Virus record (IMG/VR): IMGVR_UViG_3300002223_000010
Coordinates: 9,677 to 48,736 of that record
Source: a virus
Reading direction: 5' to 3' (one strand)
Length of the DNA: 39,060 nt
In this document: positions 1 to 39,060 of the stretch, piece by piece
Layout: every line of letters begins with the position of its first letter
Numbering within the stretch: the first letter of the stretch is position 1
Notes under the pieces: model-generated
Told to the model about the DNA's origin: nothing
Database searches by the model: none
The model's input: only the letters and a program-made list of their open reading frames with translations
Program-made: the position numbers and the translations under genes

Positions 1-1425
1 GAGCCTGTTGCGGAGGGTGTGGGCCATGGCCCAGATGCCGAAAAGGCCACTCGCATAATGCCTGCCCCTCCGCGCCTTGTTGAGGGGGCTGCGGGCCAGC
101 GTGAAGTTGCCGCTAAGGCCAGCTTAGCCGTGCCCGCTCCCCCTCGCTTTTCCGACGATCCCCGCATCCAGGACATTATGGCCCTGGCCCGCGACCGTGC
201 CTATTGGATGCAAATGCGCTTGCGGAATACGGCGCATCTCGCGGCCCGCATCAGAACCGAATTGCAGCCCACACGCGGCCAGGAAGAAACCTGGGCCGAA
301 GAGACAAAGAGCGCGGCGCTCAAGATAGCGCACGAAGCCGTCGCGCATCAAAAGCGCAAGCTCGAAAACGTCGCGCGCGAAGAGATTGGATTAAAGCCGC
401 GCAAGGACGTGCCGGAGCCCGAGCATCCCATTGGAAGGCTTAGCTTCGTCCTCAAAACGGCCCTCAGCTTGGCGCAATGGGAGCTTGAGGAAGAAAAGAC
501 CTTGGCGGAAATGGAGAACATCGCCGCCACGCTCCCGGTAGCGGCTTTCGTCAACGCCCCCGAGCGCAAGGGCTTCACGCTTGCCGGCCTCGCGGTCATC
601 ATCGGCCATGCTGGCCATCCGCTCGATTACCCGAAGAAAGGCCATCTGTGGAAGCGTCTCGGCCTCGCGCCATTCAGCAAGAACGGCACGACGCGCGCGG
701 GCTCTACATGGGGCCGTTGTGGCGGGCTTGAGAAAGATGATTGGATCGAACTCGGCTACAAGCGTTCGCGCCTTGGCGATCTATTCGGCAAGATCACGCA
801 GCCGCTTCTCTATGCGCAATGGCGTAGCACCGGGGCGATAGGCCCCTATGGCGAGGCGTATGGCCGTTACAAGGCGCGGCAGAAGGAATTGAACGAATCC
901 GGCGCGTTCGCGGAAGAGGCGGCGCGGCAGGTCGCATCCGCGAAGAAAGCGGGCCGCAAACCGCAAAAGGCGCTGACCGAGGGCAAGCTATCGGACGGGC
1001 AGATCAACGCCCGCGCGTTGCGGTACATGACGAAGAAATTGATTTCCGACTTATGGTCGGAATGGCGGCGGATGGACCAGAAATTTCATGGCGAAAAGCC
1101 CATGGCAGGGTTGTCCCCCGCCGCCGCATCTCTTGAGGGGAAGGCCATTTCGCGTCTGTCTGCAACGCAGGCCACCAGCGTTGTGCCGACCCCTCGCCTT
1201 ATTGGGAGAAAGGCCAGCGAAACAATGCCTTCAACGAAGGCCGGCGGCGATTTGCCGATCTCCCAACCCCTTGAGCGGGAGGCCCGCCTTGCTGTGCCGC
1301 GCGAAGGTGCGGCCAGCGCGCTTTTGCCGACCGCTCAAACTAATCGGAGCAAGGCCAAAACTAAAATGCCTTCGTCGAAGGCCAGATGCGCGGTGCCGGC
1401 CTCCGACCCTATTGCCGCCGAATGA
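1..1425 (+). CDS. Phage protein with IS110-transposase-like core, 5' end cut by window
   Basis: The frame is open from base 1; the first in-window start is GTG at 19, but the repeat pattern and open frame before it suggest the true start lies outside. A central region (about residues 180-360) has a layout like the C-terminal domain of IS110/IS116 transposases: a glycine-rich turn (GLAVIIGHAG), LWKRLGLAPF, then basic helices ending near residues YMTKKLISDLWSEWRR. I see no convincing N-terminal DEDD catalytic domain, so it is probably not an active transposase. Both termini are low-complexity repeats of about 23-24 residues with consensus K-A-x3-[MVL]-P. The stop overlaps the next start (ATGA). 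It may be an exapted DNA/RNA-binding protein; the function is unknown. Confidence 0.6.
   Translation, partial: EPVAEGVGHGPDAEKATRIMPAPPRLVEGAAGQREVAAKASLAVPAPPRFSDDPRIQDIMALARDRAYWMQMRLRNTAHLAARIRTELQPTRGQEETWAEETKSAALKIAHEAVAHQKRKLENVAREEIGLKPRKDVPEPEHPIGRLSFVLKTALSLAQWELEEEKTLAEMENIAATLPVAAFVNAPERKGFTLAGLAVIIGHAGHPLDYPKKGHLWKRLGLAPFSKNGTTRAGSTWGRCGGLEKDDWIELGYKRSRLGDLFGKITQPLLYAQWRSTGAIGPYGEAYGRYKARQKELNESGAFAEEAARQVASAKKAGRKPQKALTEGKLSDGQINARALRYMTKKLISDLWSEWRRMDQKFHGEKPMAGLSPAAASLEGKAISRLSATQATSVVPTPRLIGRKASETMPSTKAGGDLPISQPLEREARLAVPREGAASALLPTAQTNRSKAKTKMPSSKARCAVPASDPIAAE
22..134 (+). repeat. 5' hairpin repeat array (GGCCA-N9-TGCC units)
   Basis: Four exact copies of GGCCA-N9-TGCC start at 22, 45, 94 and 117, spaced 23, 49 and 23 bases, giving a 72-base period. 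Between TGCC and the next GGCC lie short loops (gaaaa, gctaa) or a longer inverted repeat (GCCCCTC at 64-70 with GAGGGG at 82-87). The copies at 22 and 94 sit in a different reading phase from those at 45 and 117, so protein constraint alone does not explain the conserved motif. Confidence 0.7.
1115..1397 (+). repeat. 3' hairpin repeat array (GGCC-N10-TGCC units)
   Basis: Units start at 1143 (TGTC variant), 1170, 1212, 1239 (GGCCG), 1281 (GGCCC), 1311, 1353 and 1380, always 14 bases from GGCC to TGCC, with a 69-72 base super-period. The intervening segments are inverted repeats whose arms differ but stay complementary: CTGC-aac-GCAG, TTC-aac-GAA, CTCCC (1260-1264)/GGGAG (1277-1281), GCTC (1333-1336)/GAGC (1347-1350) and TTC-gtc-GAA. 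This lies inside the 3' coding end of the IS110-like gene. Confidence 0.7.
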
Positions 1426-1683: not shown

Positions 1684-2496
1684 ATGTCCGCAATTAGGGT
1701 GTTCGTCGGAGTAGCACCAAACGGATCTGACGCTGAAAGCGCGGCGGTCCTCGATTATACTTTGCATAAACACGCCTCGCGCCCGCTCGAAATAACGTGG
1801 ATGGCGTTGTCAAAAGACCCTGCGAGCCCGTTCTATTCGGACCCAGCGATTGGTGCGGGCTGGCGGACGAATTTATGGCCGACGCCGTTCAGTTGTTTTC
1901 GCAATGCGGTTTCTGAAATTTGCGGCTTCGAGGGTAAAGCAATCTACATGGATTCTGATTGTCTCGCGCTCGCGGACATTGCAGAATTATGGGATCAGGA
2001 ATTTCTCCCCGGCAAGTGCATCATCGCGAAAGACGCGGGGCGCTTGTGTGTGAGCCTTTGGGATTGTCGGCGGGCTCGCGATCTTGTTCTGCCGATGGAC
2101 TTGCTTAGGCAGGTAAACGGCCATCAGGTCATGCGCCAACGGATTATTCAGTCCGGCGCGGTGCAGGCTTTCGAGGGTGGGAATTTTAATTGTCTCGACG
2201 GCGAGAAATACGAGCGCATCGACGATCCAGAAATCAAAGTGATCCACTATACCGATATGTCAGCGCAGCCCCACTTAAAGCACGCCCTGCCGCGTTTGGC
2301 GGCGGTCGGTCAACGCCATTGGTACGATGGCCCGATCCGGGAACACTGGCGGAAGGATTTAATAGCGCTGTTTGATGCGCTTCTGTCAGAAGCGGAGGCG
2401 GCTGGTTTTGCACGCGAAAATTACGTCCCGCTTTCTATGTTCGGACATATTCCCAAAAATTCCCTGGTAAATCATCCGGGAAGACACCCGAGATGA
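1684..2496 (+). CDS. GT-A-type glycosyltransferase (GT8-like)
   Basis: A 270-residue protein beginning with a Rossmann-like strand (RVFVGVAPNG) and carrying a DxD motif in AIYMDSDCLALAD (about residues 85-97), the usual site for metal and nucleotide-sugar binding in GT-A enzymes. A later segment (FEGGNFNCLDGEKY) and a conserved-looking HY pair (IHYTD) fit GT8-type transferases. It would move a sugar from an NDP-sugar to a glycan or protein in the cytoplasm; donor and acceptor cannot be told. It opens the glycan island and is followed by a second GT-A gene. Confidence 0.75.
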   Translation: MSAIRVFVGVAPNGSDAESAAVLDYTLHKHASRPLEITWMALSKDPASPFYSDPAIGAGWRTNLWPTPFSCFRNAVSEICGFEGKAIYMDSDCLALADIAELWDQEFLPGKCIIAKDAGRLCVSLWDCRRARDLVLPMDLLRQVNGHQVMRQRIIQSGAVQAFEGGNFNCLDGEKYERIDDPEIKVIHYTDMSAQPHLKHALPRLAAVGQRHWYDGPIREHWRKDLIALFDALLSEAEAAGFARENYVPLSMFGHIPKNSLVNHPGRHPR

Positions 2497-2518
2497 GGCG
2501 CGAGCAAAGGGCGCTGCC

Positions 2519-3211
2519 ATGACCATCACTTTCGCCTGTGTCCGCAGCGGCAAAAAATACGGCCCCGAATATGTGGAGCGCCTCCGCAATGGCGTGGCGC
2601 GGCATTATCGCGGCGAGCATGAATTCATTTGTTTGACGGATCAGCCAGAAGAGATTGAGGGCGTCGCGCGCATCGACATCGCGAAGCACGGGCTCACGGC
2701 ATGGTGGGTGAAGATGATCCTATTTTCCCCAGCCATTCGCGGGCCTAACCGCGCCATATATCTGGACCTCGACACGGTGGTGGTTGGCGATCTTACGCCA
2801 CTCACCAATACGCCGGGAGACTTTGGAATTTGCGAGAGCTTTACGCGCGCGGCGGGGCACGCATCGTGGCCATGCTCCTACGGCTCCTGCGCGATGACGT
2901 TCGCACCAGGGTGGGGACAGAATGTTTGGGAAGCGTTCTATGCAGAGCGCGAGGCACTTATGGGTGAGGCAATGGGTTTTGGAGATCAGTTTGCAATCGA
3001 AAGGCTCATAACGATATTAGCCTTGGGGGCTGGTGTTGTAGCGCTTCCGACCATTCTGCAACGCGTCCTCCCAGCGGGTTTCTTCCTGAACAAGCGCGAT
3101 CTGCACAAATATCCCGATGCACCGCCTGCCGGTGCCGCGCTGGTAATCTTCGGCGGGAACGAGCGCCCTCACAACTGCACGATTCCTTGGGTGAAGCGCG
3201 AATGGCATTAA
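2519..3211 (+). CDS. Second GT-A-type glycosyltransferase
   Basis: 230 residues with the motif AIYLDLDTVVVGDL (about residues 78-91), a DxD metal site flanked by hydrophobic strands, and an N-terminal strand TFACVRSGKKYG typical of the nucleotide-binding half. A late FFLNKRDLHKYP followed by a hydrophobic strand and PHNC probably closes the active site. It differs clearly from its neighbour at 1684, so it is not a recent duplicate. The 22-base gap from the previous gene contains an AAAGGG-like ribosome site. The FkbM-like gene overlaps its end by ten bases. Confidence 0.75.
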   Translation: MTITFACVRSGKKYGPEYVERLRNGVARHYRGEHEFICLTDQPEEIEGVARIDIAKHGLTAWWVKMILFSPAIRGPNRAIYLDLDTVVVGDLTPLTNTPGDFGICESFTRAAGHASWPCSYGSCAMTFAPGWGQNVWEAFYAEREALMGEAMGFGDQFAIERLITILALGAGVVALPTILQRVLPAGFFLNKRDLHKYPDAPPAGAALVIFGGNERPHNCTIPWVKREWH

Positions 3212-3858
3212 GTGATGCTCTGGTTGGCGGGTGGGGTACAGACCGCAAGGGGCGGCGCGTTTGCACGTCTCGTTTCAATCCCGCGTGGTTGGGCGAGCTT
3301 GGCATAGACCCCGCCGTTATATTCGACGTTGGCTCTTATGATGGGGCCGACGCGCTAAGGTTGAAGGATAAATTTCCGAAAGCGATAGTCGTTTCGGTTG
3401 AAGGCGATCCCATCCGCGCTGCGGCTATTCGCAAGAGCCTCGTGGGCGAGGACATCATTTTCATCGAAGCGGCTATTTCGGATGAGGTTGGGACCGTCGA
3501 GTGGTATCAGGGCGGCGACCGTTCGGAATTTGGCAGCAAGAATGGTTCTATCTTTAGATGGATAAAAAAGCCGGTTCGCGAACCGGATAAAGTGCCCTGC
3601 ACAACGCTGGCGGCGATTTGTGCCGCGCGTGGTATCATTAAGATTGATCTGATTCATATGGACGTAGAGGGTGCTGAGCTATTCGCGATGCGCGGGCTCG
3701 GAACTATTCAGGCGCGTTTGGTGTGGGCGGAAGTTGCGAACGCTTGGCCCGATGCGCCGGGACCGATTGCAACGCACGCCGAATTCCTGAGCATGGGCTA
3801 TATCCAAATTGCTGCGGCGGGATCAGACAGGCTCTATCTGAGGGATGGGCGATGCTGA
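3202..3858 (+). CDS. FkbM-family SAM-dependent methyltransferase
   Basis: ATG at 3202 is chosen over an upstream TTG; it overlaps the glycosyltransferase stop. After about 35 residues comes IFDVGSYDGADALRLKD (motif I, SAM binding), then VVSVEGDP (the acidic residue after the second strand) and IDLIHMDVEGAELFAMRG, the signature MDVEGAE block of FkbM methyltransferases. At 218 residues it is of normal size. FkbM enzymes usually O-methylate sugars or polyketides; with glycosyltransferases either side, methylation of a sugar hydroxyl is the likely job. Confidence 0.85.
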   Translation: MALSDALVGGWGTDRKGRRVCTSRFNPAWLGELGIDPAVIFDVGSYDGADALRLKDKFPKAIVVSVEGDPIRAAAIRKSLVGEDIIFIEAAISDEVGTVEWYQGGDRSEFGSKNGSIFRWIKKPVREPDKVPCTTLAAICAARGIIKIDLIHMDVEGAELFAMRGLGTIQARLVWAEVANAWPDAPGPIATHAEFLSMGYIQIAAAGSDRLYLRDGRC

Positions 3859-4394
3859 AGCTCCACGTTGGCTGTGGCGAGCGGTATCTGCCGGGGTACG
3901 TGCATGTGGATTCGCGCAAGCTTCCGCGCGTCGATGTTGTTTGTGACGTTGAGAGCCTATTGGAGCATTTTGGCCCCGCGAGCGTCGGTGAGATTTATCA
4001 TTGCGCGTTGCTGGAACACCTTCCGCGCGACCGCGTTCTGCCGGCGCTTAGGCGTTTCCATTACCTGCTGAAGCCGGGTGGGCGGCTTGTCAGCTCCGTG
4101 CCGAATTTCGCCAGCATCGTGGAAGCCTACCGCCGCCGCATCGTGCCGCTCGAAGGTCTCTTCGGGATGCTCTACGGCAAGAGCGATTATCCAGGCAACA
4201 TGCACCACGGGATGTTCGATTTCGATCTAATGTTGGGGCTTCTGGCTAAATCGGGATTTGTGCGCGCTGGCCTGTACGATTGGCGCACCTTTCTCCCCGA
4301 AGGCTATGACGATTTCTCGCGGGCCTACATGCCGCACATGGATTTCGAGAACGGAATGCCGATGATGTTAAATGTCATGGCGGACAAACAATGA
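3852..4394 (+). CDS. Class I SAM methyltransferase (180 aa)
   Basis: ATG at 3852 overlaps the FkbM gene by seven bases. The product begins MLKLHVGCGERYLPGYVHVD, the compact form of motif I seen in predicted SAM-dependent methyltransferases of surface polysaccharide clusters, followed by VDVVCD, a catalytic-region block ALLEHLPRDRVLPALRRFH, and LLKPGGRLVSSVPN, the post-core strand and turn. Its target is probably a sugar in the same glycan. The stop overlaps the next ATG (ATGA). Confidence 0.8.
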   Translation: MLKLHVGCGERYLPGYVHVDSRKLPRVDVVCDVESLLEHFGPASVGEIYHCALLEHLPRDRVLPALRRFHYLLKPGGRLVSSVPNFASIVEAYRRRIVPLEGLFGMLYGKSDYPGNMHHGMFDFDLMLGLLAKSGFVRAGLYDWRTFLPEGYDDFSRAYMPHMDFENGMPMMLNVMADKQ

Positions 4395-4528
4395 CGCTAA
4401 CGGCATTGATATTGGGATGGCTCTTTGTGATCGCCGGGGGCGTGATGGTGATGCGCCCTGGTGGCCTTGGTGTTGGCGTTTGCGGCGCGGTGATTCTCGG
4501 CGCGGCCTATGCCGGCGCGTTCAACTGA
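4391..4528 (+). CDS. Small two-helix membrane protein (45 aa)
   Basis: It starts within the stop of the methyltransferase gene (ATGA). The product is hydrophobic throughout: one helix from LTALILGWLFVIAGGVMVM, a short glycine turn, and a second hydrophobic segment ending YAGAFN. No family is recognised. Its place in the glycan island is compatible with a membrane anchor or small flippase-like accessory, but nothing in the sequence proves that. Confidence 0.6.
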   Translation: MTLTALILGWLFVIAGGVMVMRPGGLGVGVCGAVILGAAYAGAFN

Positions 4529-4554
4529 TATGGCGGATAAACCTGGAGAGCCCG

Positions 4555-4932
4555 ATGCGCATCGTTGACCGAAAGACTTTTCTGTCACTCCCTGACGGCA
4601 CCGTTTTTGCCAAATTCGATGCGCAACCCAGCGACGGAAGCCATCACGTCCTGACCTATGACGAGGTCGCGATTAAGGGCGAGACGGTCTCTGGGGTTGA
4701 CTTTGTAGTGCAGGAACTCTTCCCCTCGTTCGAGGGTGTGAACGATTCCGGCATGTGGGCGGATACGATGATTGCAATGCTTAGGGGGACGCCCTCGCCA
4801 CCGCTTGATTACGATTGCGGATCACGCGATGGGCTGTTTGATGACGATCAGCTTTTCGCAGTCTGGGACAGAGAAGATCATCGGCGCCTGATAGTGAGAC
4901 TACAGGACGCCTTTTTACAAGCGTACAAGTAA
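4555..4932 (+). CDS. Conserved-type phage hypothetical protein (125 aa)
   Basis: ATG at 4555 follows CTGGAGAG, a good ribosome site. The soluble acidic product begins MRIVDRKTFLSLPDGTVFAK and ends LQDAFLQAYK. It has a small beta-rich N-terminal half and a helical C-terminus. No catalytic motif stands out and I cannot assign a family. Codon use resembles its neighbours. It separates the methyltransferase group from the Cys-rich protein and sulfotransferase. Confidence 0.65.
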   Translation: MRIVDRKTFLSLPDGTVFAKFDAQPSDGSHHVLTYDEVAIKGETVSGVDFVVQELFPSFEGVNDSGMWADTMIAMLRGTPSPPLDYDCGSRDGLFDDDQLFAVWDREDHRRLIVRLQDAFLQAYK

Positions 4933-4943
4933 GGATAGTAAAA

Positions 4944-5135
4944 ATGGATGCTTGCGGCAAATGTTTTCATTGGGCGCGGCTAACCGATCCCAACGTGACG
5001 CTTAGCCCGTGGGGCAAATGTTTCTTTGCCGCTCCGCAGCCGATGGCCGTTTCCGCGCCCGCCTATACGACGCGGCCTATCACGCTGGAATTGGATCGCT
5101 GCTCAAACTTCAAAGAGAACAAGCCTGACAAATGA
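4944..5135 (+). CDS. Small Cys-rich, possibly zinc-binding protein (63 aa)
   Basis: It begins MDACGKCFHWARL with a CxxC pair, then a central Cys (WGKCFFAAP) and a last Cys (DRCSNFK). Four cysteines of this spacing suit a zinc site, as in many small phage proteins of the CxxCxxW type. The stop overlaps the sulfotransferase start (ATGA). The function is unknown. Confidence 0.6.
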   Translation: MDACGKCFHWARLTDPNVTLSPWGKCFFAAPQPMAVSAPAYTTRPITLELDRCSNFKENKPDK

Positions 5136-5670
5136 TCCTCGCGAATGGCTGCCCGAAAAGCGGAACGCACGCGCTCATGGCGTGGCTTGAAGGCTTGGGG
5201 CTGAAGCGTATGGCGGGCGTTGTGAAGGTTTGGGACGGATCGCCGCGCCTTCGGGCGGAACTCGACGGGCTCCCGTGTATCGGCGATTTTATTCACTCGC
5301 ACATTCCCTTTGGATACGATGTTGGAAGTCATCGCGTAATCACGATTATCCGGGACCCGAGGAATGTGCTGCTGAGCTACGCGCGGTGGCTTCAGGCCAT
5401 TGGGAAAAACATAATGTTGACGCCATTGCGGCCCTTACAGATTTTCAAGGCGACCAGTTCATTCCGAAATACCGCTCGTTCCTCGATTGGCGCGGCAACA
5501 GCACGATCATTCGCTATGAGGAATTGGTTCCGGGCGGCAGAACGTCGGGGCCGACAGATACCTACACGGGTTCGCCATCGAATTGGCGCGAGCACTGGCC
5601 TTCAAAATTGGAATCGGCCTGGGCCGACATGGGCGGAAACGATTTGCTGAAAGAGGCGGGGTATCACTGA
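5132..5670 (+). CDS. Sulfotransferase-like protein split by a -1 frameshift
   Basis: The first frame starts at 5132 with NGCPKSGTHALMAWL, a 5'-phosphosulfate-binding loop of PAPS-dependent sulfotransferases, and continues to IIRDPRNVLLSYARW, the 3'-phosphate-binding segment. After AIGKN homology moves to the -1 frame, which reads HNVDAIAALTDFQGD, then TIIRYEELV and GSPSNWREHWPSKLESAW and ends at 5670. Together they make about 179 residues with all expected parts. The switch can be placed at G_AAA_AAC (5404-5410). Either a base is missing from the A run, the gene is broken, or ribosomes shift. The first frame alone ends uselessly at 5650. Confidence 0.7.
5404..5410 (+). other. Candidate -1 slippage site in the sulfotransferase gene
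   Basis: In the upstream frame the codons are GGG AAA AAC; a one-base backward slip on G_AAA_AAC enters exactly the frame carrying the C-terminal sulfotransferase half. It is weaker than a canonical X_XXY_YYZ heptamer because the first position is G. A one-base deletion in a six-A run would look identical. Confidence 0.4.
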
Positions 5671-5885
5671 TGTTGCGGTGGACACTGACTGCTCTAATCC
5701 CGGTATGGATTTTTGGTTTTACGTCTCTTCTTGGACGGCTGCTAGTATGGCTTCAGAACGATAAAAACGAAAATTTATGGTGGTCAATTCCTGCGTGGAT
5801 GGCGCTCGGGTTGCCGATTTTATTTCTAGGTGTGGCTGGGCTCGAATTTGTATTATTCCTTTGGATAGAGGCGGCGAGACCATGA
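5670..5885 (+). CDS. Small membrane protein with two helices (71 aa)
   Basis: ATG overlaps the sulfotransferase-frame stop by one base, which supports the idea that the -1 frame of that gene is translated through to its end. Helix one covers LTALIPVWIFGFTSLLG, a polar NDKNENLWW loop follows, and helix two covers MALGLPILFLGVAGLEF. The family is not recognised. The stop overlaps the epimerase start by four bases. Confidence 0.65.
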   Translation: MLRWTLTALIPVWIFGFTSLLGRLLVWLQNDKNENLWWSIPAWMALGLPILFLGVAGLEFVLFLWIEAARP

Positions 5886-6790
5886 AAGCTCTGATTACCG
5901 GCGGGGCTGGATATACGGGCGTCCCTCTTTGCGCAGCGCTTCTCGCGGCGGGGCATCGCGTCATGGTGCTCGATAATTTTATGTTTGGCGTATCGCCGCT
6001 TTTGCATCTTGCCTCGCATCCGAATCTTGAGATTGTCCGTGGCGATATCCGAGACGAGCGGCTGGACTGCCTTTCTGGCCATGACGTGATCTATCACCTT
6101 GCCGGTATCAGCGGCTATCCAGCGTGCGAGGCGAACCCTAGCGGTGCTCGGCTCATAAACATCGACGGCACACAAAACATCGTTCGCAAACTCGACCCCG
6201 GCCAGCTTCTTATTAATGCCTCCACCACAAGTTTTTACGGCGCGAGCAAAACCGAGTGCCGGGAGACTGATCCCATCGTGCCTGTGAACCTCTACGGCGA
6301 AAGCAAGAAGGCGGCAGAAGATATCTGCATGGAGCGGGAGAATTCTATCTCGCTCCGATGGGCAACCGTGTTCGGCGTAGCGCCACGGATGCGCGATGAT
6401 CTGATGGTGAATGATTTTGCCCGCCGGGCGCTTCGTGACCGGGCGCTCGTTCTGTACGATCCCGATTCGACGCGGACGTTTATCCATATCGCGGATCAAG
6501 TGACGGGCTACATTTTTGCAATGGAGAACGCCGACAGGATGGCCAGCGGTATCTACAACATGGGCTCGGCCAAGCTGAATTACACAAAGCGGCAGATAGC
6601 GGAAGCGGTCGCGCGCGAGGTGCCGTGCGAGATTATTGTCGCGAAGAGCGGCGATAGGGACGTGCGTGATTTTCTCGTGCAATTCGACAAAGCCTATGCG
6701 TTAGGCTTCGATTGCGAGAAGACGCTGCAAGACGGCGTGAGCGAGCTTGTGAAGCTCTACCGCTTGGGCGACGGGCGGGCTGTGGCATGA
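5882..6790 (+). CDS. NAD(P)-dependent NDP-sugar epimerase/dehydratase
   Basis: An extended short-chain dehydrogenase of 302 residues. MKALITGGAGYTG is the GxxGxxG dinucleotide-binding loop, GDIRDE the acidic adenine-side motif, ASTTSFYG supplies the catalytic Ser/Thr, and NLYGESKKAAE contains the YxxxK pair. TRTFIHIADQV matches the sugar-nucleotide binding region of GalE/RmlB-like enzymes. It acts on an NDP-hexose in the cytoplasm (epimerisation, reduction or dehydration not resolvable). It overlaps the aminotransferase gene, a pairing typical of amino-sugar pathways. Confidence 0.85.
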   Translation: MKALITGGAGYTGVPLCAALLAAGHRVMVLDNFMFGVSPLLHLASHPNLEIVRGDIRDERLDCLSGHDVIYHLAGISGYPACEANPSGARLINIDGTQNIVRKLDPGQLLINASTTSFYGASKTECRETDPIVPVNLYGESKKAAEDICMERENSISLRWATVFGVAPRMRDDLMVNDFARRALRDRALVLYDPDSTRTFIHIADQVTGYIFAMENADRMASGIYNMGSAKLNYTKRQIAEAVAREVPCEIIVAKSGDRDVRDFLVQFDKAYALGFDCEKTLQDGVSELVKLYRLGDGRAVA

Positions 6791-7881
6791 TCCGTCAAGT
6801 TCAGCCCTGGATCGGAGCGGCAGAGCGCGAAGCGGTCGCGCGCTGCATAGACGACAATTGGCTGACTGAAGGCCCCCGCTGCAAGGAATTCGCCGCGCGC
6901 CTGTGTGAGCTTATCGGGAGCCCCTACGGCGTGTTCGCGCCGAACGGCACGCTTGCCCTCGCGCTTGGTCTGATGGCGCTCGGCATCGGGCGCGGGGATG
7001 AGGTGATCGTTCCCAACTCTACATTCATCGGAAGTGCGAACGCGGTTGTTCTCACGGGCGCGGTGCCGGTTTCCGTGGATATTGAGCCAGATCATTTTCA
7101 GATCGACGTGGCGCAAATCGAGGCGGCAATAACGCCGCGCACGAAGGCGATCATGCCGGTGCATCTATTTGGCACGGCGGCGGATATGGAATTTATCGAA
7201 GGGCTGGCTGAGGCGCGCAATCTATTCGTGATTGAGGACGCCTGCCAGGGCATCGGCGTTACGACCTTCGACGGCCCCCACGTCGGCAGCATTGGTGATG
7301 TGGGCTGTTTCTCATTCTTCGCCGACAAGACAATTACCACGGGCGAGGGCGGCTTTATCGTTTGCCGTGATATGGCGGTTTACGAACGCCTGCTGTTGCT
7401 CCGAAACCAGGGGCGTCCGAACAGCGGGACGTTTATTCACCCGTCCATCGGCTGGAATTTCCGCATTACGGACATGCAGGCGGCCATTGGTCTAGCACAA
7501 ATGGACCGGCTTGAAGTCATCATAGACCGCAAGCAGCGCATCTATGCCGCCTATCGCGAAGAGCTGGAAGGCGTCTCGCAAATCCGTATTCTATCCGCCG
7601 CGCCGAATAGCAATCTCGTCCCGTTCCGCCTTGTCATCATGTGCGACCGTGCGCCGGAACTTTCCGAGCATTTGCGGGCGAACGGCGTAGAGCCGCGCGG
7701 ATTCTTCTATCCCTTGCACCGGCAGCCGTGTTTCAGCGCTGGCCGTGCGGCACAGCGAGACGATAAATTTCCCGTTTCGATCCGCGCGCATGAACGCGGC
7801 CTGTGCCTTCCGATCTATCCGACGATGGCGGAGGCCGATGTTTCCACGGTAATAAGGGCGATAAAGGTGTTTTATGCGTAA
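6787..7881 (+). CDS. DegT/DnrJ/EryC1 PLP-dependent sugar aminotransferase
   Basis: 364 residues, full family length. It begins near QPWIGAAEREAVARCIDDNWLTEGP, typical of perosamine/DegT-type aminotransferases. GVFAPNGTLALALGL is the phosphate-binding loop, VIEDACQGIGV carries the Asp that binds the PLP pyridine nitrogen, and FSFFADKTITTGEGGF holds the Schiff-base lysine. NFRITDMQAAIGLAQMDRL is the usual subunit-contact block. The predicted product is an amino sugar from a keto-NDP-sugar, feeding the glycosyltransferases. ATG overlaps the epimerase stop. Confidence 0.9.
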   Translation: MIRQVQPWIGAAEREAVARCIDDNWLTEGPRCKEFAARLCELIGSPYGVFAPNGTLALALGLMALGIGRGDEVIVPNSTFIGSANAVVLTGAVPVSVDIEPDHFQIDVAQIEAAITPRTKAIMPVHLFGTAADMEFIEGLAEARNLFVIEDACQGIGVTTFDGPHVGSIGDVGCFSFFADKTITTGEGGFIVCRDMAVYERLLLLRNQGRPNSGTFIHPSIGWNFRITDMQAAIGLAQMDRLEVIIDRKQRIYAAYREELEGVSQIRILSAAPNSNLVPFRLVIMCDRAPELSEHLRANGVEPRGFFYPLHRQPCFSAGRAAQRDDKFPVSIRAHERGLCLPIYPTMAEADVSTVIRAIKVFYA

Positions 7882-9066: not shown

Positions 9067-9629
9067 CCGTCATCGAAGGACGCCAGCACGCCACGACACT
9101 TGTGGAAATCCGCCGCGATCACGTCGAGCGCTACCGCTTTGCAGCGCTTCACGCGCGCGGGACGGTTGCCGATCTTGGCTGCGGTATCGGCTACGGCTCA
9201 AACATCATGGCGACGGCGGGGCGCAAGGTCCACGCTTACGACAAATCAGCCGATGCAATCTCGTTCGGAGAGCAACATTGGGACCATCCCAATATCACAT
9301 GGATCGCGCTTCCGCTCGAAGGCTACTCGAAGATCATTTCCGATTGGGCCGTATGTTTCGAGGTAATCGAACATCTGGAAAATCCGCTCAAGCTATTGCA
9401 GTCGATCAAAGCCCCGCTTTTAATTTGCAGCGTGCCGAACGAGGACGTTATGCCGTTCGATCCAAAACGTCACAGCTATCATCATCGCCATTATACGCGC
9501 GATGAATTTGGCGCGCTTCTGACGGCAACAGGCTGGCGCGTCACGGGCTGGCATGGGCAGCAAGGTAAGCAATCTCCCGTCGAGCCGGACGTAAACGGCA
9601 TGACGCTGATAGCGATGTGCGAGCGATGA
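9063..9629 (+). CDS. Class I SAM methyltransferase (188 aa)
   Basis: ATG overlaps the previous stop. VADLGCGIGYGSNIMATAG is motif I, VHAYDKS follows the second strand, and CFEVIEHLENPLKLLQSI is the typical EVIEHL block of UbiE/COQ5-like methyltransferases. The end contains HRHYTRDEFGALLTATGW, a common C-terminal cap. It is the fourth methyltransferase in the island, so the glycan product is probably heavily methylated, or several phage-specific glycans are made. Confidence 0.8.
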   Translation: MTVIEGRQHATTLVEIRRDHVERYRFAALHARGTVADLGCGIGYGSNIMATAGRKVHAYDKSADAISFGEQHWDHPNITWIALPLEGYSKIISDWAVCFEVIEHLENPLKLLQSIKAPLLICSVPNEDVMPFDPKRHSYHHRHYTRDEFGALLTATGWRVTGWHGQQGKQSPVEPDVNGMTLIAMCER

Positions 9630-9880
9630 TAAGAACGATTACCGACGCCAGAACGAAGATGTGCCCGCTGGCCCCAATGCCCGCAAAGTGCGTGGCTTCT
9701 GACTGTATGGCGTGGGAGCCGATGGGAGGCGAAGGCGAAAGCGCGCGAGGGTATTGCGCGGTTTTCTTGGCCTCAATTAGAGACAGGCCGGCGCCAGGGC
9801 GGAAGCAGAAGCCGAAGGACAATATTCGGACGCTCAGGATTGTGACGCCGCTAAAGCCGACAGACAGAGGCGCTGCATGA
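9626..9880 (+). CDS. Small Cys-containing phage protein (84 aa)
   Basis: ATG overlaps the preceding stop (ATGA). KMCPLAPMPAKCVASDCMAW places three cysteines within 15 residues, as in small phage zinc-type proteins whose core reads CxxSxCMAW; the C-terminal half is basic and looks disordered. The stop overlaps the start of the GT11-like gene. Confidence 0.6.
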   Translation: MIRTITDARTKMCPLAPMPAKCVASDCMAWEPMGGEGESARGYCAVFLASIRDRPAPGRKQKPKDNIRTLRIVTPLKPTDRGAA

Positions 9881-38419: not shown

Positions 38420-39060
38420 CACCTGGGCTCCTTTGCTGCGGCGAGAGCGGCGCGGGTTGTTAGGCTGCGGTTTGCTTTGACGATCTCGGCGAACCTATCG
38501 TGGCCGTATTGGCCCCTGGTAAGAGCGAGTATTTCCGTCAGCGTGTAAGACTGCTTGAGCTTGCCCTGCGCTTCGATGAATCTCGCCACCCCGTACTGGC
38601 AGGCTCCAGTGACCATGCGATAGACCAGCGCCCATTCGGACGGTGACTTCTTCGTGTCGCGCGGCATGTTGCGATATCGCTCGACATCGCGCGGGCCGAT
38701 CTTGAATTGGAGTTCTTGGATCGCTTCCGCGATGGTTTTGCCGTGGGCGTTGTCGGAGCCCTTCTGCGCAACGTAGAATTTCTCGCCGATCACCTTCTGA
38801 TTTTTAATCTCGGAGCGTCGGCACATCAGGACCGTTACGTTGTCCTGCTTCTTTTCGGAGAGAACGACGCAGCCAATCCCGTCGATCACGCGGAATTTGT
38901 CGTATCCGCCGCAATAGAGCCTGCCTGCGGTCAATGCGCCTTTGCTGTAGATGGACAGGTCGCCGCCGACGCTGGTGAGCGCAGGCGCATCGAGCTTGGC
39001 GCTGCTGTGGATGGACAGATCGCCGCCGACGCTGGTGAGCGCATCGAGCTTGGCGCTGCT
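38419..39060 (-). CDS. Repeat-containing phage protein, 5' end cut by window
   Basis: The frame is open to the window end, so the gene starts outside. The visible N-terminal part has tandem repeats (SAKLDAxxLTSVGGDLSI) like leucine-rich, solenoid-type phage proteins; the C-terminal part contains FYVAQKGSDNAHGKTIAEAI and SEWALVYRMVTGACQYGVARF, a helix set found in such proteins. The function is unknown; a solenoid could bind protein or glycan. Confidence 0.65.
   Translation of the reverse strand, partial: SSAKLDALTSVGGDLSIHSSAKLDAPALTSVGGDLSIYSKGALTAGRLYCGGYDKFRVIDGIGCVVLSEKKQDNVTVLMCRRSEIKNQKVIGEKFYVAQKGSDNAHGKTIAEAIQELQFKIGPRDVERYRNMPRDTKKSPSEWALVYRMVTGACQYGVARFIEAQGKLKQSYTLTEILALTRGQYGHDRFAEIVKANRSLTTRAALAAAKEPR
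38944..39057 (-). repeat. Tandem repeat of 60 and 54 bases in coding sequence
   Basis: Two units (38944-39003 and 39004-39057) are nearly identical apart from a six-base insertion (two codons) and two base changes. They encode the solenoid-like repeats of the partial gene and continue past the window. Confidence 0.75.

What the first reader, a model, noticed from the sequence alone, without database searches (positions are those of the whole stretch)
1..1425. Hairpin repeat arrays with compensating stems at both ends of an IS110-like gene
A motif GGCC-N10-TGCC recurs twelve times in 1.4 kb (nine exact with GGCCA) and nowhere between about 135 and 1140. The spacers are inverted repeats with different but paired arms: CTGC/GCAG, TTC/GAA twice, CTCCC/GGGAG, GCTC/GAGC, GCCCCTC/GAGGGG. 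In the 5' array the motif occurs in two reading phases. This points to selection on DNA or RNA structure, not only on the protein. IS110-family enzymes are known to work with structured RNAs, so a link is worth testing but is speculative.
Basis: partly seen in the sequence, partly recalled or inferred. Interest (0 to 1): 0.78.

Follow-up and report, generated by a model that had tools for sequence, protein, structure and literature searches.

The report
Guide-RNA array inside phage genes
The repeats are ten guide-RNA hairpins of a phage TIGR-Tas system, a recently discovered RNA-guided DNA-binding machine, and here and in related phages the guides are written inside the protein-coding genes themselves, in reading frame, which has not been described in the text available to us.

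Summary
The motif is the repeated half of a guide-RNA hairpin: outer stem, GG-CCA (box C), 9-nt spacer A, TG (box D), inner hairpin, CCA, 9-nt spacer B, TG, outer stem. Six hairpins lie in the window and four more just upstream (L001), ten in all. The gene is not an IS110 transposase. It is TasA, the nuclease-less, Nop-domain protein of TIGR-Tas systems: NCBIfam TIGR_Tas E=1e-13, and the AlphaFold model's best PDB matches are TasR and TasH, ahead of IS621. Tandem stem-loop arrays with TasA were reported by Faure et al. 2025, so the system is a known kind. The variant is where the guides sit. In this locus and many relatives the units lie inside open reading frames, in frame: in the linker of a conserved upstream partner gene, in the tails of tas, and in some relatives inside the Tas domain gene. 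Unit spacing is a multiple of three in 14/14 partner-gene intervals against 42/114 outside ORFs, and 0/248 in-frame spacer triplets are stops. Between four closely related loci the spacers are 29% identical while stems are 95%. No natural target was found. Expression, processing and function are untested.

The parts
10..73 (+). TIGR stem-loop unit U5: stem 10-17/66-73, spacer A 27-35 TGGCCCAGA, spacer B 50-58 CTCGCATAA
   Evidence: motif; fold z -3.2; arm test; in frame of tas ORF
82..145 (+). TIGR stem-loop unit U6: stem 82-88/139-145, spacer A 99-107 GCGTGAAGT, spacer B 122-130 GCTTAGCCG
   Evidence: (z -4.3); 72 nt after U5, same phase
178..1089 (+). TasA (Nop-domain, no nuclease) folded region, 304 residues
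   Evidence: NF052498 E=1.1e-13; AF2 pLDDT 89; PDB matches 9mty (TasR), 9w04, 9w02, 21kl (TasH), then 8wt6/8wt9 (IS621)
1..1425 (+). tas open reading frame as it runs through the window. Upstream ATG at L001:9589 overlaps the stop of the preceding ORF; one ambiguous N at L001:9676 breaks the frame between U4 and U5
1135..1195 (+). TIGR stem-loop unit U7 in the 3' coding tail of tas: stem 1135-1140/1190-1195, spacer A 1148-1156 TTTCGCGTC, spacer B 1175-1183 CCAGCGTTG
1203..1265 (+). TIGR unit U8: stem 1204-1208/1260-1264, spacer A 1217-1225 GCGAAACAA, spacer B 1244-1252 GCGGCGATT
   Evidence: 69 nt after U7
1271..1338 (+). TIGR unit U9: stem 1272-1278/1331-1337, spacer A 1286-1294 GCCTTGCTG, spacer B 1316-1324 GCGCGCTTT
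   Evidence: (z -4.3); 69 nt after U8
1345..1405 (+). TIGR unit U10: stem 1345-1349/1401-1405, spacer A 1358-1366 AAACTAAAA, spacer B 1385-1393 GATGCGCGG
   Evidence: (z only -0.8, weakest stem); 72 nt after U9

Best explanation
The locus is a TIGR-TasA system of a tailed phage. One transcript is expected to carry an upstream partner ORF and tasA, plus ten stem-loop guide units in three groups: U1-U3 inside the upstream ORF, U4-U6 at the start of the tas ORF, U7-U10 in its 3' coding tail. Each unit would yield one tigRNA with two 9-nt spacers held by box C (CCA) and box D (TG). A TasA dimer should bind one tigRNA and open an ~18-bp DNA site by pairing spacer A with one strand and spacer B with the other. 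With no nuclease domain it should bind and bend rather than cut, so the likely outcome is RNA-guided blocking or regulation of DNA of competing mobile elements. Because the guides lie in frame inside the coding sequence, the mRNA of TasA and its partner is also the guide precursor. Maturing guides should cut the message, and TasA binding to its own message should limit translation, so dosage would be self-limiting. SHOWN here by sequence: the array anatomy, the Tas homology and fold, the in-frame placement, the operon with a conserved partner family in relatives, the spacer hypervariability. INFERRED from Faure et al. 2025 for relatives: processing and dual-strand targeting. INFERRED without a test: one transcript, blocking as the outcome, and self-limitation.
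For: Tas identity: (61/61 aligned relatives hit TIGR_Tas). Array identity matches the published stem-loop TIGR arrays (two 8-12 nt spacers, CCA and UG boxes, variable palindromic stems). Ten units in this 48.7-kb contig, all on one strand and only here. The same unit type surrounds tas in relatives: 422 units on the + strand, 24 on the - strand, 8 in shuffles over 86 loci. In-frame placement: spacing a multiple of 3 in 14/14 intervals inside the upstream partner ORF (P=2e-7) against 42/114 outside ORFs; all 29 such units in phase 2; 0/248 in-frame stop triplets in spacers against 31/620 in the other frames; an independent set from bacterial genomes gives 7/8. Units even lie inside the Tas domain gene of L019, L020, L024, L025, L027, L046 and L157, at a loop, all phase 2. 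Spacers 29% identical, stems 95%, protein domains 91% between four related loci.
Against: No RNA data, so transcription, processing and loading are untested. The window protein scores below NCBI's curated cut-off (52 against 100 bits), though far above chance. No convincing target was found. The upstream ORF of this contig was not recovered by a partner-family model built without it (hhalign E=0.087), so its membership rests on position, the overlap with tas and the in-frame units. A single N at L001:9676 makes the U4-U5 spacing 73. The 3' array is also open in a second frame, so for this contig alone the in-frame case is weaker than for the group.
Confidence: 0.88

Rival explanations
1. A degenerate or unusual IS110 insertion sequence whose hairpins are bridge-RNA loops guiding recombination.
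For: The Nop/RNA-binding domain is shared, and 47/61 relatives also hit the IS110 model weakly. IS621 follows Tas in the fold search. Each hairpin resembles one bridge-RNA loop.
Against: No DEDD domain in Pfam or in the model. Ten loops in three groups, not one two-loop RNA. The TIGR_Tas score exceeds the IS110 score. TasR and TasH rank first structurally.
Confidence: 0.03
2. The arrays are TIGR guides, but their lying inside ORFs is passive: a stop-poor, GC-rich array simply leaves the frame open and is not translated.
For: In several clades the tas stop-to-stop frame extends upstream through units of mixed phase (L002, L019, L066). The window's 3' array is open in two frames.
Against: Conserved domains flank the units in the partner ORF, with 14/14 spacings divisible by 3 and disordered-linker confidence in the model. 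Units occur inside the Tas domain gene itself. Spacers show stop avoidance in one frame only.
Confidence: 0.1
3. A variable protein-repeat region under selection at the peptide level, the hairpins being a by-product.
For: The units encode a recurring peptide, G-[HQ]-xxx-A-D-K-A-xxx-[VM]-P, in frame.
Against: Arms pair unit by unit. The same hairpins are used in non-coding arrays of relatives. The box and 9-nt spacer geometry is constant across clades with different reading phases.
Confidence: 0.02

Closest known systems
TIGR-TasA with stem-loop arrays (Faure et al. 2025, PMC12045711; Peromyscus gut contig, 13 stem-loops in three subarrays)
   Same: Nuclease-less Nop-domain TasA; dual spacers of 8-12 nt; CCA and UG boxes; variable palindromic stems; three subarrays; mostly on mobile elements
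   Different: Units embedded in frame in the tas ORF and the upstream ORF; a conserved upstream partner family; inner hairpin GCC/GGC between the two spacers; spacer hypervariability measured between orthologous units. The first two and the last are not in the main text read here; supplements were not held
TIGR-TasR and TasH dual-repeat systems (PDB 9mty, 9w04, 21kl)
   Same: Fold, box C/D logic, presumed dual-strand targeting
   Different: No RuvC or HNH domain; stem-loop units of about 60 nt with long variable stems instead of 36-nt repeat units
IS110/IS621 bridge-RNA recombinases
   Same: RNA-binding domain; loop with left and right guides
   Different: No DEDD domain; many single-loop guides; no donor loop
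Box C/D snoRNPs (Nop5/Nop56/58)
   Same: Nop domain; two guides between C and D boxes
   Different: No K-turn motif or fibrillarin gene was noticed (not searched systematically); targets presumed to be DNA

Membership tests
TIGR-Tas | Effector with the Tas-type Nop domain | tested here: met
   NF052498 E=1e-13 for the window, 61/61 relatives; PDB best matches 9mty, 9w04, 9w02, 21kl
TIGR-Tas | Score above NCBI's curated cut-off for the endonuclease equivalog | tested here: inconclusive
   52 of 100 bits; the model is named for an RNA-guided endonuclease, and this protein has no nuclease domain
TIGR-Tas (stem-loop type) | Tandem units with two 8-12 nt spacers flanked by box C (CCA) and box D (UG) | tested here: met
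   Ten units, spacers exactly 9 nt; same in relatives
TIGR-Tas (stem-loop type) | Variable but palindromic sequences enclosing each unit | tested here: met
   0 of 20,000 arm permutations; folds
TIGR-TasA | No nuclease domain fused to the Nop domain | tested here: met
   No Pfam nuclease; the folded region starts at window 178 with a long helix
TIGR-Tas | Array transcribed and processed into tigRNAs bound by Tas | not testable with these tools
   No RNA data
TIGR-Tas | Spacers direct DNA binding at an adjacent A/B site | tested here: inconclusive
   No target above chance in own or related phages, IMG/VR patterns, or the phage collection
IS110 transposase | N-terminal DEDD (RuvC-like) catalytic domain | tested here: not met
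IS110 transposase | Single bridge RNA with target and donor loops next to one end of the element | tested here: not met
   Ten single-loop units in three groups

The most novel reading that the evidence does not exclude
The message that encodes TasA and its partner is itself the guide precursor. Its spacers are rewritten in place, quickly and without breaking the reading frame, by an unknown targeted process, possibly involving the uncharacterised partner protein, while stems and protein domains stay fixed.
Probability: 0.3. Interest if true: 0.9.

Novelty: new variant of a known kind. Interest (0 to 1): 0.75.

Why it matters
Faure et al. list spacer origin, array maintenance, tigRNA maturation and the role of TasA as open. 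Guides written inside the genes tie guide maturation to translation of the effector, which gives a direct experiment on maturation and dosage. Orthologous arrays with 95% identical stems and 29% identical spacers show that spacers change at fixed sites rather than only by adding units. The conserved partner gene, next to tas in 76 of 86 loci and in 12 of 12 further loci, is an obvious missing component to test.

Tried and rejected
IS110 membership: rejected (no DEDD, wrong RNA layout). Self-targeting or targeting of related TIGR phages: 340 unique spacer pairs against 1.24 Mb gave no perfect site; four 17/18 hits where I estimate about two by chance. IMG/VR exact pattern scans: U1 3 hits (2 distinct sites), U10 6 hits (3 distinct sites), swapped-pair control 0; a few are expected by chance, so no claim. 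Rhizobium phage RHph_X2_25 spacers (eight of ten pairs) against all phages: none, at a sensitivity that can miss gapped sites. Aminobacter spacer in six host genomes: none. Rfam: one weak snoRNA match on the other strand, far below its gathering score. Partner protein: no convincing Pfam, PHROG or PDB assignment. My first idea that the upstream ORF here belongs to the partner family by sequence was not confirmed by leave-one-out. A scan of IMG/VR for the partner family alone could not be run.

Full report
WHAT IS THERE. The window is positions 9677-48736 of a 48.7-kb IMG/VR contig. I read the upstream part as locus L001 (window position = L001 position minus 9676). Upstream, the same motif continues in L001 8964-9665. 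A scan of the whole contig on both strands finds ten complete units, all on one strand and only between L001 8964 and 11073.

THE UNIT. Each unit reads: outer stem, GG, CCA, 9-nt spacer A, TG, CC-loop-GG, CCA, 9-nt spacer B, TG, CC, outer stem (the A of CCA is replaced in a few boxes). Spacer pairs (A/B): U1 GAAAAATAG/TTGGGGATA, U2 ACGCGCTCG/AGTTCCCAA, U3 TCCTTGTGC/AGCACTCCG, U4 TCCGCATAC/GGCACTCCG, U5 TGGCCCAGA/CTCGCATAA, U6 GCGTGAAGT/GCTTAGCCG, U7 TTTCGCGTC/CCAGCGTTG, U8 GCGAAACAA/GCGGCGATT, U9 GCCTTGCTG/GCGCGCTTT, U10 AAACTAAAA/GATGCGCGG. The stems differ between units yet pair within them: own arms score 15.9 on average, swapped arms 8.3, none of 20,000 permutations reaches the observed value, and the ten places were chosen without a stem criterion. 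Single units fold more stably than shuffles in most but not all cases (U10 is not significant alone).

THE PROTEIN. The ORF 1..1425 has no Pfam hit. It hits NCBIfam NF052498, TIGR-Tas (E=1.1e-13 for the protein from window 178), below the curated cut-off. An alignment of 61 relatives gave a confident AlphaFold model (pLDDT 89). Its best PDB matches are TIGR-TasR 9mty and TIGR-TasH 9w04, 9w02 and 21kl, followed by IS621 (Foldseek E-values 0.008-0.3, probability 0.97-1.00, so the match is distant). There is no DEDD, RuvC or HNH domain. This is TasA.

KNOWN KIND. Faure et al. 2025 (PMC12045711) describe TIGR-Tas. They include TasA with tandem stem-loop arrays: two 8-12 nt spacers between box C (CCA) and box D (UG) inside variable palindromes, pulled down and sequenced as separate units. 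The window fits each sequence feature that can be tested. Targeting in their work needs spacer A on one strand and spacer B on the other, adjacent or with a gap of up to 2 bp; the site order I searched (A followed by the reverse complement of B) is my derivation from their 8-nt 3' overhangs.

RELATIVES. A profile scan of IMG/VR gave 80 more tas loci, beyond the Rhizobium phage group. With a fixed detector, 86 loci hold 422 units on the tas strand, 24 on the other, 8 in shuffles. Bacterial hosts of relatives named by genome records are mostly Alphaproteobacteria: Bauldia, Aminobacter, Brucella/Ochrobactrum, Rhizobium, Shinella, Methylobacterium, Acidiphilium, Paracoccus, Devosia.

A CONSERVED PARTNER. 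An uncharacterised gene lies directly upstream of tas on the same strand in 76 of 86 loci (one of the 76 being this contig, see below); the only two strong hits elsewhere are in loci with a different gene order. Inclusion in that iterative model was loose and position-restricted, so the clean test is the validation: a model trained without them finds it upstream of tas in 12 of 12 bacterial-genome loci, E 5e-8 to 4e-40 (a few of these are relatives of loci in the training set). It has no convincing Pfam, PHROG or PDB match. The corresponding ORF of this contig (L001 8763-9596) was not recovered by leave-one-out and only hinted at by hhalign. Its link rests on gene order, the ATGCGTAA overlap with the tas start (L001 9589) and its in-frame units.

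GUIDES INSIDE GENES. In L008, L009, L010, L011, L012, L017, L018 and this contig, units sit between the two domains of the partner ORF and/or in the tails of tas. Spacing between neighbouring units inside the partner ORF is a multiple of three in 14 of 14 intervals (P=2e-7 if independent; four of the loci are related), against 42 of 114 outside ORFs. In the tas C-terminal tail it is 7 of 8. In the tas N-terminal frame it is 32 of 61, because some of those frames are merely open and not coding. All 29 units inside the partner ORF share one phase. In the spacers of 62 embedded units, 0 of 248 in-frame triplets are stops, against 31 of 620 in the other frames. That test is partly conditional on the ORFs being open, but in the partner gene the frame is fixed by flanking domains. 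In the validation set 7 of 8 intervals are in frame. The strongest evidence is that units lie inside the Tas domain gene in seven further loci, at the loop that corresponds to window TasA residues 74-88 in those mapped, always in the same phase. The model of the partner from L010 shows the array-encoded linker as disordered (pLDDT 46-50) between more ordered domains.

SPACER TURNOVER. Four loci about 87% identical overall (L009, L011, L012, L018; two of them proviruses of one bacterial genome by their IMG id) have the same units at the same sites: outer stems 95% identical, remaining (mostly protein-domain) DNA 91%, boxes 84%, spacers 29%. A few spacer pairs still share 7 of 9 positions, so change by substitution is visible in places. 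This speaks against growth by adding units as the main source of new guides here; how spacers change is unknown.

TARGETS. None found. See Tried and rejected. The absence of perfect sites in related TIGR phages argues that these guides do not aim at the phage itself or its near kin.

MECHANISM AND LIMITS. I commit to an RNA-guided, non-cutting DNA binder whose guides are cut out of its own message. The RNA-guided part is inferred from studied relatives; the blocking outcome and the self-limiting loop are inference. No expression data were available. The supplements of Faure et al. were not held, so I cannot exclude that coding-embedded units are mentioned there; the main text does not mention them in the passages searched and read.

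VERDICT. A known kind of system with a new layout: guide RNAs doubly encoded with protein.

Noticed in passing
L001:9676 (one base before the window start): A single N between U4 and U5; it adds one base to the otherwise three-divisible spacing and spoils the 3' arm of U4, so it looks like an assembly error.
   Followed up: partly
L001:9097-9168 and 9609-9675: U3 and U4 are near-duplicates with almost the same spacer B (AGCACTCCG/GGCACTCCG) but different spacer A, a possible unit duplication followed by spacer change.
   Followed up: no
L001:8497-8757: An XRE-type helix-turn-helix gene (by eye) directly upstream of the partner ORF; in Rhizobium phage RHph_X2_25 the tas genes also lie between repressor C and an XRE gene.
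   Followed up: no
window 1684-7881: A cluster of glycosyltransferase-like, FkbM methyltransferase, epimerase and DegT aminotransferase genes between the head and tail genes, suggesting phage-encoded surface-sugar or glycosylation functions.
   Followed up: no
L011 and L018: Two proviruses of the same bacterial genome (IMG id 2894228515) carry the same array frame with unrelated spacers.
   Followed up: partly
L156:2971-3675: Partner protein with an N domain like L017 and a C domain like L155, joined at the array (by eye): the array may be a site of domain exchange.
   Followed up: no
window 38943-39060: Tandem repeat of period 60, 2.1 copies, running off the window end.
   Followed up: no
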